From contig NZ_KB892844.1 of NCBI RefSeq assembly GCF_000373965.1, positions 1 through 54,037 of the forward strand: a stretch of DNA of 54,037 bases, in the 5' to 3' direction. The notes beneath the pieces were generated by a model, which saw only the letters and a program-made list of their open reading frames with translations, was not told the origin of the DNA and did not search any database. The position numbers and the translations under genes were made by a program. The stretch is from Uliginosibacterium gangwonense DSM 18521. GTDB taxonomy: Bacteria; Pseudomonadota; Gammaproteobacteria; Burkholderiales; Rhodocyclaceae. Shown here piece by piece: positions 29,669 to 33,175 of the stretch; positions within the stretch are counted from its first letter, which is position 1, and every line of letters begins with the position of its first letter.

Positions 29669-30229
29669 ATGACAATCACAACACTTGATCCGCGTACGGC
29701 GCTGATTCTGATAGATTTGCAGGCAGGGATTCTTGCGCTGCCCACGGCACACCCTTCAAGCGAAGTTTTGCGACAGTGCTGTGTGCTGGCCGAAGCGTTC
29801 CGGCGCCATCAACTGCCGGTGGTGCTGGTCAATGTGGCAGGGGCTGCGCCGGGGCGAACCGAGCAAGGCTCGCGCCCTGCTCCGCCCGCAGGCTGGAGTG
29901 AGTTGAGCCCTGAACTGAATCCCCAGCCGCAGGATCATCGGGTGACCAAACATACTTGGGGCGCATTTACGGATACGGGCTTGGCAGAGTATCTGCACCA
30001 GCAGCAGGTGACCCAGGTGGTGATCGCCGGGATTTCCACCAGCATCGGGGTGGAGTCAACAGCGCGTCAGGCACAAGAGCGCGGCCTGAATGTGACGCTT
30101 GCGATTGATGCGATGACCGACACCAGTGCCGAGGCGCATACCAACAGCATTACCCGTATCTTTCCGCGTTTGGGTGAGACAGGAACCTGTGCTGATATTC
30201 TACGTCTGCTGGAGACGCGCACGCGGTAA
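29669..30229 (+). CDS. Isochorismatase-family hydrolase lacking the catalytic cysteine
   Basis: A 186-residue Rossmann-like hydrolase of the isochorismatase superfamily. The catalytic Asp (ALILIDLQAGI) and Lys (HRVTKHTWGAFTDTG) are present. At the nucleophile position the usual Cys is replaced by Gly (GISTSIGVESTARQA), as in true isochorismatases, which use no Cys, and in a poorly studied subgroup. It is thus unlikely to be a nicotinamidase or carbamoylase. No siderophore or phenazine gene is nearby. The 3' end of the gene overlaps the inverted-repeat element at 30229. Confidence 0.82.
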   Translation: MTITTLDPRTALILIDLQAGILALPTAHPSSEVLRQCCVLAEAFRRHQLPVVLVNVAGAAPGRTEQGSRPAPPAGWSELSPELNPQPQDHRVTKHTWGAFTDTGLAEYLHQQQVTQVVIAGISTSIGVESTARQAQERGLNVTLAIDAMTDTSAEAHTNSITRIFPRLGETGTCADILRLLETRTR

Positions 30230-30344
30230 GAAGCCGTAACAAAATGGTTCTGGCGTTGTTTTGCACCGCCTTGCCGTACTGCTTGTACTGTCTGCGTCGG
30301 CGCGTCTAGCCAGAACCGTTGCACTGCATTTTGTTAAAGCTTCT
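30229..30344. repeat. 116-bp inverted-repeat element with a core like Neisseria Correia elements
   Basis: The ends are inverted repeats: AGAAGC, two bases, TAACAAAATG, then GTTCTGGC on the left; the same blocks in reverse complement on the right, with an extra 10 bases (CGTTGCACTG) between the last two. The reversed core contains GCAGACAGTACAA, then AGTACGGCAAGGCG and a CAACGCC end. From memory this is nearly the core of Correia repeats, in which GCAGACAGTACAA, AGTACGGCAAGGCG and GCAACGCC follow in the same order. Only the outer inverted repeat differs from the neisserial TATAGTGGATTAA. It begins on the stop codon of the hydrolase and ends 15 bases before the convergent regulator. Best read as a small non-autonomous MITE-like element or a structured RNA-forming repeat. 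Confidence 0.72.
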
Positions 30345-30358
30345 AAGTGCCCTAAGGC

Positions 30359-30790
30359 TTATCCCAAATGGGTGTGGCGTTTCTGTTTGGGTTCGTTTTC
30401 CATTGCGGCGATTCCATCCAGAATGCCGCAGGTGCCTACGGTCTGTTCGGTTTGGCAACGTTCGCGTAGCTGTACCAGGGATTGCTTGAGGTGTTCCAGT
30501 TCCTGGATGCGTTCCTCAACGTGTGCGATATGCACATCGAATACCTCATTGACGGCGCCGCAGCCTGCCCCCGGTTGATCGATCAGGGCGAGCAGGCGGC
30601 GGATTTCTTCGTGGCTCATGTCCAGGGCGCGGCAATTGCGGATCAGGCGCAGGCGCTCGACATGCGTAGGGCCGTAGGTGCGGAAGTTGTTCCCGGTGCG
30701 GGCCGGGGCGGGCAGGAGCCCCTCTCTTTCGTAGTAGCGCACGGTTTCAACCGTGCTTTGGGTCAGCCGTGCAAGCTCGCCGATTTTCAT
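30359..30790 (-). CDS. cadR: MerR-family Cd/Pb-responsive regulator
   Basis: A 143-residue MerR protein. The DNA-binding helix-turn-helix is MKIGELARLTQSTVETVRYY, followed by the long dimerisation helix. Metal-binding cysteines are C77, C112 and C121, the CadR/PbrR pattern, where spacings of 35 and 9 match the lead-type subgroup more than the cadmium CadR (35 and 7). The C-terminus ends with a small His-containing tail. It is divergent from the P-type ATPase, and the MerR-type promoter lies between them. CadR versus PbrR cannot be settled by eye, so the symbol is provisional. Confidence 0.88.
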   Translation of the reverse strand: MKIGELARLTQSTVETVRYYEREGLLPAPARTGNNFRTYGPTHVERLRLIRNCRALDMSHEEIRRLLALIDQPGAGCGAVNEVFDVHIAHVEERIQELEHLKQSLVQLRERCQTEQTVGTCGILDGIAAMENEPKQKRHTHLG

Positions 30791-30817
30791 GATGGAGTCC
30801 GGGCAGATGAACAAGGG

Positions 30818-30848
30818 TTGACTCTATAGTAGCTACAGGATGTGGAAT
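30818..30848 (+). promoter_or_regulatory. MerR-type promoter and operator of the metal efflux ATPase
   Basis: TTGACT (-35, 30818-30823) and TGGAAT (-10, 30843-30848) are separated by 19 bases, the long spacer that MerR regulators untwist. Between them CTATAGTAGCTACAG is a dyad centred in the spacer. The layout and sequence are close to what I recall of the PbrR-controlled pbrA promoter. Confidence 0.8.
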
Positions 30849-30877
30849 GTGCTCATCAAGAATCAGGAGCCTATTCC

Positions 30878-33175
30878 ATGTCTGCCCATCATACCCACGA
30901 TCAACATGACTCGTGCTGTGGTCACGATCACGCCGAGCATGCACACACGCCTGCCCCAACGCCCCTGTGGAAGCTTGTGGCGCAGCCGTCGCAGCCCGCC
31001 TCATCGTGCGGAAGCGGCTGTGGCTGCGCCTCAGGCACTGCAGCGGTAATCGAACCTACGCCCGTGATTGAGATCGCCGGGGCGGTGCAGACCCGTATCC
31101 GCATCCTGCAGATGGATTGCCCGACCGAGGAGGCGCTGTTGCGCCGCAGGCTGGGGGGCATGGCAGGCGTTGCCCACCTGGAATTCAACCTCATGCAGCG
31201 CATCTTGACGGTGACCCATCTGCCAGCGGTTCTGGAAGAGGTGCTGGTGGGTATCCGCTCCTTGAGCTTCAACCCCGAACTGGTGGATGAAGAGGCACCC
31301 ATGCAGGCGGTGGTGGCTCCTAACGCATCCTGGTGGCCGCTGCTGGCGGCGGGGGGCGCGGCGATTGCCTCCGAAGCCATTCAGTGGCTGGGCATGCCCG
31401 CGTGGTTGTCGGCTGCGCTGGCGGTTGCGGCGGTGCTGATTGGGGGTGTCACCACCTTCAAAAAGGGCTGGATTGCGGTGCGCCACGGCAACCTCAACAT
31501 CAATGCCTTAATGAGTATTGCCGTGACCGGGGCTTTGCTGATCGGGCAGTGGCCAGAGGCGGCCATGGTGATGGTGCTCTTTACGCTGGCCGAGCGGATT
31601 GAGGCGCTGTCTTTGGACCGCGCCCGCAATGCCATTCGCGGCCTGATGGAGCTTGCCCCGGAGCAGGCCACAGTTTTGCAGCCAGATGGTAGCTGGCTGG
31701 CCCAAGCCGCCAGATCGGTAGCGCTCGACGCACGGGTGAGGGTGCGCCCCGGCGAGCGCATTGCGCTGGATGGCTGCATCGTGAGCGGCCAGTCCGCCAT
31801 CAATCAGGCTCCCATCACCGGTGAGAGCCTGCCGGTGGAAAAAGGGGAGGGCGACCCTGTGTTTGCCGGGTCCATCAATGAAACCGGTTCCTTTGACTAT
31901 CGCGTGACCGCGCTAGCCGACAACAGCACCCTGGCCCGCATCATCCATGCGATTGAAGCGGCGCAAGGTGCGCGGGCGCCCACGCAGCGCTTTGTCGACA
32001 AATTCGCTCAAGTTTATACCCCGCTTGTTCTGCTGATTGCACTGGCGGTCGCTATTGTTCCTCCGCTTGTTTTTGCGGGGGCGTGGTTGGTGTGGATCTA
32101 CAAGGCGCTGGTGTTGTTGGTGATCGCCTGCCCGTGTGCCCTGGTGATCTCGACCCCGGTCACCATCGTCAGTGGGCTGGCGGCGGCCGCCCGACATGGC
32201 ATCCTGATCAAAGGCGGCGTGTACCTTGAGGAGGGCCGCAAACTGGGCTGGATCGCCTTCGACAAAACCGGCACGCTGACCCACGGCAAACCAGCCCAGA
32301 CCGATTTCGTCGCCTTGCCCGGTTTTGATGCGGCGCATGTCCGCAGCATCTCGGCCAGTCTGGCGAGGCGATCCGACCACCCCGTTTCGCACGCGGTCGC
32401 TGAAGCAGCAAGGTGCGATGGGGCGCTGCTACTGGACATCAAGGGGTTCGAGGCGCTACCCGGCCAAGGTATCCGTGGGCAGGTCGAAGATCGCATCTAC
32501 ACGCTGGGCAATCACCGCCTGATCCATGACCAGGGCCTGTGTTCTGAAGCTTTAGAAGCACAGATTTCCGGCCTCGAATCCCAAGGTAAGACGGTTATCC
32601 TGCTTGCCGATGATGACAAGGTACTGGGCCTGTTTGCCGTGGCGGATACCGTCAAACCCAGCAGCCGGGAAGCTGTAGCGCAACTGCATGCGTTGGGCGT
32701 CAAGACACTCATGCTCAGTGGCGACAACCCGCATACGGCCAATGCGATTGCCGCCCAGGTCGGCATTGATGAGGCGCAGGGCAACCTGCTGCCAGAAGAC
32801 AAACTCAAGTGCATCGAAGCACACCTGTCCGCCAAAGCCCGTGTCGGCATGGTGGGCGACGGCATCAACGATGCGCCTGCGCTGGCGCGTGCGGATATCG
32901 GCTTCGCCATGGGGGCCGCAGGCACAGGTACGGCAATCGAGACAGCCGATGTGGCCTTGATGGACGACGACCTGCGCAAGCTGCCACGTTTCATCCGCCT
33001 TTCACGCAGCACCTATGCGGTGCTGATCCAGAATATCGTCATGGCGCTGGGCATCAAGACGGTATTCCTGGTGCTGACGCTGCTCGGGATTGGCACGATG
33101 TGGATGGCAGTTTTTGCCGACGTGGGGGCGAGCCTGCTGGTGATCGGCAATGGGCTGAGATTGCTGCGGCGGTAG
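30878..33175 (+). CDS. cadA: Heavy-metal P-type ATPase (Cd/Zn/Pb efflux)
   Basis: Inner-membrane P1B ATPase of about 765 residues that pumps divalent soft metals out of the cytoplasm. The N-terminus is unusually His/Cys-rich (HHTHDQHDSCCGHDHAEHAH and SSCGSGCGC before residue 50) and precedes a heavy-metal domain whose site is MDCPTEE (C81) instead of CxxC, typical of Zn/Cd pumps. Other marks: CPC in VIACPCALVIS, phosphorylated Asp in DKTGTLT, and GDGINDAPAL. The start at 30878 has AGGAG 8 bases upstream. It is controlled by the divergent MerR-type promoter. Confidence 0.93.
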   Translation: MSAHHTHDQHDSCCGHDHAEHAHTPAPTPLWKLVAQPSQPASSCGSGCGCASGTAAVIEPTPVIEIAGAVQTRIRILQMDCPTEEALLRRRLGGMAGVAHLEFNLMQRILTVTHLPAVLEEVLVGIRSLSFNPELVDEEAPMQAVVAPNASWWPLLAAGGAAIASEAIQWLGMPAWLSAALAVAAVLIGGVTTFKKGWIAVRHGNLNINALMSIAVTGALLIGQWPEAAMVMVLFTLAERIEALSLDRARNAIRGLMELAPEQATVLQPDGSWLAQAARSVALDARVRVRPGERIALDGCIVSGQSAINQAPITGESLPVEKGEGDPVFAGSINETGSFDYRVTALADNSTLARIIHAIEAAQGARAPTQRFVDKFAQVYTPLVLLIALAVAIVPPLVFAGAWLVWIYKALVLLVIACPCALVISTPVTIVSGLAAAARHGILIKGGVYLEEGRKLGWIAFDKTGTLTHGKPAQTDFVALPGFDAAHVRSISASLARRSDHPVSHAVAEAARCDGALLLDIKGFEALPGQGIRGQVEDRIYTLGNHRLIHDQGLCSEALEAQISGLESQGKTVILLADDDKVLGLFAVADTVKPSSREAVAQLHALGVKTLMLSGDNPHTANAIAAQVGIDEAQGNLLPEDKLKCIEAHLSAKARVGMVGDGINDAPALARADIGFAMGAAGTGTAIETADVALMDDDLRKLPRFIRLSRSTYAVLIQNIVMALGIKTVFLVLTLLGIGTMWMAVFADVGASLLVIGNGLRLLRR

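What the first reader, a model, noticed from the sequence alone, without database searches (positions are those of the whole stretch)
30229..30344. Correia-like inverted-repeat element outside the typical Neisseria context
A 116-bp element has paired end blocks AGAAGC..TAACAAAATG..GTTCTGGC, with a 10-base insertion in one arm. Its reversed core carries GCAGACAGTACAA, AGTACGGCAAGGCG and CAACGCC in the same order as the Neisseria Correia repeat core, as far as I remember. The outer ends are different. This suggests a wider family of small elements sharing one core, possibly acting as mobile MITEs or as RNA processing signals. It sits exactly on a stop codon between convergent genes.
Basis: partly seen in the sequence, partly recalled or inferred. 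Interest (0 to 1): 0.7.

Follow-up and report, generated by a model that had tools for sequence, protein, structure and literature searches.

The report
Correia-like mobile hairpin beyond Neisseria
A small mobile DNA element here carries, inside different ends, the same folded core as the Correia repeats of Neisseria, so those repeats look like one branch of a wider bacterial family that often sits right behind stop codons.

Summary
The element proper is 30230-30343 (114 nt) between TAA and TAA; the left TAA is the upstream gene's stop codon. It is a MITE: 16 places in its genome match at E<=1.7e-16; a 3-bp TWA duplication is intact at 10 of 16. Its core aligns to a Correia-ended copy on viral contig L094 at 32 of 36 positions, 0 of 1000 shuffles reaching the score, and to N. 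gonorrhoeae at 49 of 62. Its end repeats and target site differ from Correia's, so it is no Correia element proper. The same core, CTTGCC-GTAC-N5-GTAC-TGTCTGCG on a stem that covaries (three of five measures beat all 500 shuffles), lies inside several different end sequences; a covariance model finds it in 49 of 200 genomes of the order. Elements start at stop codons with a strand bias: 36 sense, 9 antisense of 125. I read it as a transposase-moved shell carrying a structured 3'-UTR module. The transposase and the RNA role are inferred; no autonomous partner was found where I looked. Open-licence text searches showed no report of the core outside Neisseria.

The parts
30230..30343 (+). the mobile element proper (114 nt; 11 of the 16 copies measured are 112 nt)
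   Evidence: ends fixed by terminal repeats and target duplication
30227..30229 (+). left copy of the target duplication, TAA; also the stop codon of the upstream gene
30344..30346 (+). right copy of the target duplication, TAA
30230..30246 (+). left terminal inverted repeat GAAGCCGTAACAAAATG
30327..30343 (-). right terminal inverted repeat
30247..30254 (+). inner arm GTTCTGGC
30309..30316 (+). inner arm GCCAGAAC, pairs with 30247-30254
30317..30326 (+). 10-nt unpaired insert in the right arm, seen at the same place in most full-length sister copies
   Evidence: by eye
30263..30269 (+). stem A, 5' side (5 of 7 pairs formed in this copy)
   Evidence: covaries across 58 sequences
30297..30303 (+). 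stem A, 3' side
30270..30296 (+). conserved core CTTGCC-GTAC-TGCTT-GTAC-TGTCTGCG; GTAC pairs 30276-30279 / 30285-30288, variable loop 30280-30284
29669..30229 (+). upstream gene, isochorismatase-domain protein, ending in the target duplication
30359..30814 (-). convergent MerR-family regulator gene

Best explanation
A non-autonomous mobile element (MITE) that belongs to a superfamily defined by one structured core shared with the Correia elements of Neisseria, enclosed here in a different shell. A transposase acting in trans probably recognises the shell (terminal repeats GAAGCYRTAACAAAATG) and inserts it into TAA/TTA, duplicating the triplet; when the target is a TAA stop codon the duplication restores the stop, so the gene survives and the element becomes its 3' untranslated region. 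Read in the mRNA, the element folds into a long hairpin: outer arms, a stem A whose sequence is free but whose pairing is kept, and an apical motif (CTTGCC, a GTAC/GTAC stem with a variable loop, TGTCTGCG) whose sequence is kept. That motif most likely acts at the RNA level as a processing, protection or 3'-end signal, as double-stranded Correia RNA is bound and cut by RNase III. Shown: family, duplication, core homology, covariation, stop-codon strand bias. Inferred: the transposase, transcription, and the RNA role.
For: Multi-copy: 16 places at E<=1.7e-16; 17 model hits in this genome. TWA duplication identical at 10 of 16 copies, best pair of copies 98% identical, and two identical 113-nt copies 1834 bp apart in different flanks on the viral contig L392. 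Core homology to Correia: blastn E=8e-5 against N. gonorrhoeae with a 70-nt sister-copy query; window element 32 of 36 against L094 and 49 of 62 against N. gonorrhoeae L119. Same core in different shells: end classes, two shells in one genome, G184. Stem A covariation: 79.8% of cells paired against 66.9% shuffled, 91 double-changed cells against 39.2+-5.1, covariation score 0.313 against 0.121, each 0 of 500; best slid control 47 double-changed cells. In 48 copies of the genus fetched by whole-element BLAST, the 24 fixed core positions average 0.90 identity, stem A 0.72, the NNN of the loop 0.52, and 5 copies have a 6-nt loop: a loop that tolerates length change fits a folded strand better than a spaced dimer site. 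Stop-codon bias: within 4 nt of the stop of an ORF of >=120 codons, 36 sense and 9 antisense (one element in both) of 125, against 0 and 2 for the same test 150 nt further out; p 4e-5 to 8e-4 over eight settings. RNase III binding and cleavage of Correia RNA: PMC2649163, passages and Background section.
Against: Both strands fold about equally well, so folding picks no strand. Two of five covariation measures are weaker: further pair types 5 of 500 shuffles, pairs with a two-sided change 409 of 500; relatedness also lifts such scores. RNAalifold alone predicts 8 pairs, one with a two-sided change. Codirectional neighbours show no clear orientation bias (41 sense, 35 antisense of 129 elements). 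In the Correia-like TATAG class the stop-codon counts are only 5 to 1 of 33. At wider settings the control 150 nt out is not small (18 and 18 at 20 nt). No terminator or promoter consensus at the window copy; no Rfam match. No autonomous element with these ends at the 10 DDE_Tnp_1 hits of the genome nor in the end matches listed for G000, G444, G587 and viral contigs. Six of 16 copies lack an intact duplication.
Confidence: 0.55

Rival explanations
1. The core is kept for a DNA-level reason: folded single-stranded or cruciform DNA, or a host-protein site, needed for transposition or replication of the element whatever its shell.
For: Conserved sequence across shells that presumably use different transposases; GTAC-N5-GTAC is palindromic; both strands fold equally; codirectional neighbours show no clear orientation bias.
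Against: Sense bias at stop codons, 36 to 9 of 125, is not expected of a strand-neutral DNA function, though an asymmetric insertion could give it; loops of 5 or 6 nt argue against a fixed-spacing dimer site, not against folded DNA.
Confidence: 0.3
2. Passive inheritance: the core is a neutral relic spread by recent horizontal transfer, with ends exchanged by recombination.
For: Patchy distribution, 33 of 399 genomes of the order by exact pattern; core-less short relatives exist (L089, L090).
Against: Stem A has diverged with compensating changes while the motif has not; a neutral stretch would diverge along its length.
Confidence: 0.1
3. An ordinary Correia element acquired from Neisseria.
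For: Core homology.
Against: Ends are GAAGC rather than TATAGTGG and the duplication is TWA rather than TA. BLAST relatives occur in 6 of 8 genomes of the genus, the window's own included, and copies with GAAGC ends are seen in four of the others (L265, L266, L267, L268).
Confidence: 0.03
4. Chance resemblance or a single-copy hairpin.
For: None found.
Against: Copy number and shuffles.
Confidence: 0.01

Closest known systems
Correia repeat enclosed element (CREE, NEMIS) of Neisseria
   Same: The core (32 of 36 nt to L094; 49 of 62 to N. gonorrhoeae L119), a size near the 104-108 bp class, very short relatives (about 73 nt here, L090; 69-73 bp in PMC2649163), inverted-repeat hairpin, many copies, mobiliser unknown.
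   Different: Terminal repeats, 3-bp TWA instead of TA duplication, inner arms, a host genome with none of the Correia ends seen at its copies, and in this genome a preference for stop codons.
IS5-like / PIF-Harbinger (PHIS) transposons
   Same: TWA duplication is that of eukaryotic PIF/Harbinger (PMC4482050, passages); a TNA duplication for the bacterial IS1031 group is recalled and comes from no call.
   Different: No transposase gene in the element and none found with matching ends; the passages of PMC4482050 give bacterial IS5 an ANT duplication.
ERIC and REP/BIME-type intergenic repeats
   Same: Short palindromic repeats; ERIC insertions at 3' ends of genes that change transcript levels are mentioned in PMC10969869 (passages).
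   Different: A shared core was not looked for; REP/BIME features are recalled and come from no call.

Membership tests
Correia repeat enclosed element | conserved core | tested here: met
Correia repeat enclosed element | 26-bp Correia terminal repeat (TATAGTGGATTAA...) | tested here: not met
   window ends are GAAGCCGTAACAAAATG and its inverted copy
Correia repeat enclosed element | TA (rarely CA) target site | tested here: not met
   TAA/TAA here, TWA identical at 10 of 16 copies
Correia repeat enclosed element | length classes 153-157, 104-108, 69-73 bp | tested here: inconclusive
   114 nt here, mostly 112 nt elsewhere, plus a core-less relative of about 73 nt
Correia repeat enclosed element | RNase III binding of the transcript | not testable with these tools
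   needs RNA
MITE | short, terminal inverted repeats, target duplication, many dispersed copies, no transposase gene | tested here: met
   the ORFs that overlap it are mechanical
MITE derived from an IS5/IS1031-like element | autonomous element with the same ends | tested here: inconclusive
   none found at 10 DDE_Tnp_1 hits of the genome or in listed end matches of three genomes and 39 viral stretches; other transposase families and other genomes not tested
Known Rfam RNA family | match to a covariance model | tested here: not met
   window 29900-30700 none at E<=1; four core-bearing loci none at gathering score

The most novel reading that the evidence does not exclude
The core is a previously undescribed structured RNA module of Betaproteobacteria that travels in interchangeable transposon shells and is delivered, sense-oriented, onto stop codons as a ready-made 3' untranslated region; Correia elements are its Neisseria branch.
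Probability: 0.3. Interest if true: 0.85.

Novelty: new variant of a known kind. Interest (0 to 1): 0.68.

Why it matters
Correia repeats were described in 2009 as found only in Neisseria, with an unknown mobiliser (PMC2649163, Background section). If they are one branch of a superfamily with a shared structured core and interchangeable ends, the questions of what the core does and what moves these elements become testable in harmless soil and water bacteria, and the fixed and free parts of the core say which bases to test.

Tried and rejected
Rejected: chance resemblance, single-copy hairpin, ordinary Correia element, intrinsic terminator by consensus (none found), known Rfam family.

Led nowhere: the search for the autonomous partner. 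Paired ends at insertion-sequence distance were sought by eye in the end matches of G000; at 6 of 10 DDE_Tnp_1 loci, then at all 10 with up to 4 mismatches, where one unpaired weak match turned up; in G444 (a capped list; a 1.1-kb candidate pair proved to be two separate small elements); in G587; and at 39 end matches in viral contigs (a 1.9-kb candidate proved to be two identical small elements). Only one transposase family was searched for. Lone ends in G000 (L083-L088) were read over their first 300-340 bases by eye; no gene search was made there. An empty-site comparison for the window copy failed: by BLAST five relatives match the MerR gene over most of its length and a sixth in part, while the left gene is matched in one, on another contig. 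The idea that outer arms are inverted copies of host flanks arose from four copies in G185 with four different arms and was not tested. A paper for a TNA duplication of IS1031 was not found.

Selection to bear in mind. Most loci were found by an exact core pattern, so its fixed letters are conserved by choice there. One search is freer of that: its 49 stretches are the 16 G000 places, all 25 BLAST matches of G587 and 8 of the 14 stretches of four other species printed (L269, L271, L276, L279, L283, L284 left out), fetched by BLAST with the whole element but then set in register on a core-like match with up to 9 mismatches; L324 had none and rows with a longer loop are out of register, which lowers the identities. 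For the covariation alignment I dropped 8 of 65 non-redundant rows (two G000 copies, one of them the window's own; two Correia-type rows with an insert beside the core; four with unlike left flanks) and added the window, giving 58. Gene calls come from a simple longest-ORF script and from open frames before a stop. (171 elements) used assumed ends where none were clear; others (129; 127, 125 after removing like flanks) left such elements out. L386 carries no core and was a mistaken pick.

Full report
What is there. The window copy is an imperfect hairpin. Its ends are fixed by comparison with sister copies: the element is 30230-30343, between two copies of TAA. The left TAA is the stop codon of a gene with an isochorismatase domain, and the convergent gene is a MerR-type regulator whose stop lies 15 nt beyond the element.

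It is a mobile family. The window's genome (5.02 Mb, 35 contigs, unnamed) gives 47 BLAST matches at E<=10, of which 16 reach E<=1.7e-16 and 14 of these span nearly the whole element. Terminal-repeat matches with up to 3 mismatches number 31 forward and 31 reverse, against 12 and 15 for the reversed control. The triplets flanking the repeats are identical in 10 of 16 copies, and in those 10 always TAA or TTA; in five they differ and in one, L016, the left end is lost. A match in direct rather than inverted sense is what a target duplication gives. Six of 8 genomes of the genus, the window's own included, have matches at E<=0.001; one relative has 25. On a viral contig two identical 113-nt copies lie in different flanks. 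Core-less relatives exist, about 73 and 102 nt long (L090, L089).

The Correia link is real. The window element itself aligns to a Correia-ended copy on viral contig L094 at 32 of 36 ungapped positions, at the same offset from the left end in both; the score of 52 compares with at most 26 in 1000 shuffles. Against the named N. gonorrhoeae copy L119 it is 49 of 62 with gaps. The ends do not match: Correia copies begin TATAGTGGATTAA and go into TA.

One core, several shells. Round 188 core occurrences, duplicates of site not fully removed, I extracted the best inverted repeats. By a rough rule 56 fall in a TATAG class, 45 in an AACAAAA class like the window's, 10 in CAAAAT, 9 in ATTCC and 68 in none of these, some of the last because the ends were poorly found. 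Family genome G184 holds two shells: TATAGTGAATCGCA and GAGCCGCTAATAAAACC-like. TWA duplications recur in the AACAAAA class of other genera (by eye, not counted).

Distribution. The pattern CGTACTNNNTGTACTGTCTGCG is in 6 of 199 genomes of the family, 33 of 399 of the order, 2 of 369 of the class and 4 of 299 of the phylum; in the last two the hits are all of the window's own order. The window's genome is counted in each, and the samples overlap. The reversed-pattern control was 0 in the genomes listed. A covariance model of the core finds 49 of 200 genomes and 39 of 109 genera of the order at E<=0.001; at most 28 candidates a genome were scored, so copy counts are lower bounds. That order is probably Burkholderiales in the GTDB sense, since copies with classical Correia ends occur in 'same order' genomes (L248-L250); the species is not known.

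Structure. Directly outside CTTGCC...TGTCTGCG lies a 7-pair stem of free sequence. On 58 sequences 79.8% of cells pair against 66.9% shuffled, 91 cells are changed on both sides against 39.2+-5.1, and the covariation score is 0.313 against 0.121; no shuffle of 500 reaches any of these. Two other measures are weaker: further pair types 5 of 500, pairs with a two-sided change 409 of 500. The best slid control has 47 double-changed cells. An ungapped count on 65 sequences made before any alignment agrees for the six pairs next to the motif, which exceed the largest of 500 shuffles; pairs further out do not. The GTAC/GTAC stem never varies in that set, but it was part of the search pattern. In 48 of 49 copies of the genus fetched by whole-element BLAST (one had no core-like match), the 24 fixed core positions average 0.90 identity, stem A 0.72 and the three loop bases 0.52; five copies have a loop one base longer. 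RNAalifold by itself gives only a partial structure. So pairing is kept in stem A, sequence is kept in the motif, and neither is kept in the loop.

Position. Of 125 elements with clear ends and unlike flanks, 36 start within 4 nt of the stop codon of an ORF of at least 120 codons read in the sense of the core, and 9 in the antisense (one element counts in both; p=4e-5 by a sign test that takes elements as independent); the same test 150 nt further out gives 0 and 2. At all eight settings of distance and length sense exceeds antisense (p 4e-5 to 8e-4); the outer control grows with distance, to 18 and 18 at 20 nt. By class, within 12 nt, sense to antisense is 11:1 in this genome, and elsewhere 13:6, 5:1 (TATAG) and 19:7. 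In the window 12 of 115 noncoding TWA sites are stop codons, whereas in this genome 11 of 15 copies lie within 12 nt of a stop in the sense direction. Over 171 elements 71 of 193 facing stops but 11 of 146 facing starts lie within 10 nt. Codirectional neighbours show no clear orientation bias, 41 to 35. A TAA target explains why the stop survives; it does not explain the strand bias, which suggests selection on the transcript or an asymmetric insertion.

Reading. Parts shown: mobile family, TWA duplication, common core with Correia, covarying stem, stop-codon strand bias. Parts inferred: a transposase in trans, transcription as 3' UTR, and an RNA-level job such as processing, protection or 3'-end formation. 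The nearest documented behaviour is RNase III binding and cutting of Correia RNA (PMC2649163, passages and Background; PMC10969869, passages). The DNA-level rival remains open, because both strands fold equally and the orientation bias is confined to stop codons.

What is in print. [quoted passage not shown] The passages seen of PMC5039591 and PMC10969869 name no other host for it. Text searches (listings seen, those in part) showed no report of the core elsewhere; the Neisseria form of the 21-mer is printed in one Neisseria paper, and a 13-mer of it in two, both on Neisseria. The library is open-licence only; the original Correia and NEMIS papers were not read, and PMC3024310 was not held.

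Noticed in passing
L064 and L066 (genomes G011, G185): An element sits at the same place just behind a gene ending in a GGM-rich tail, which I recall as typical of groEL, in two species of the genus; long retention at one site would suggest co-option.
   Followed up: no
L126, L132, L133, L150, L152, L187, L195 (Neisseria MAG S5R_Sa_39): Several TATAG-type end sequences (TATAGTCGGAGAAAT, TATAGTCGTTTC, TATAGTGAAAAAAC) carry the core in one genome, some elements side by side or nested.
   Followed up: no
H8, H9 (NZ_CP119140.1, NZ_CP119142.1): Two N. gonorrhoeae records of 2.17 Mb are listed as plasmids but have the size of a chromosome.
   Followed up: no
L178: A Rhizobium MAG contig carries the core; misbinning is possible.
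   Followed up: no
window 30359-33175: A MerR-type regulator gene lies beside, and divergent from, a P-type ATPase gene, a layout I recall from metal-resistance loci.
   Followed up: partly
L340-L343 (G444): Small elements with similar ends: three of 73-76 nt without the core (L340-L342) and one of 90 nt that keeps a core-like motif (L343), recalling the shortest Correia class.
   Followed up: partly
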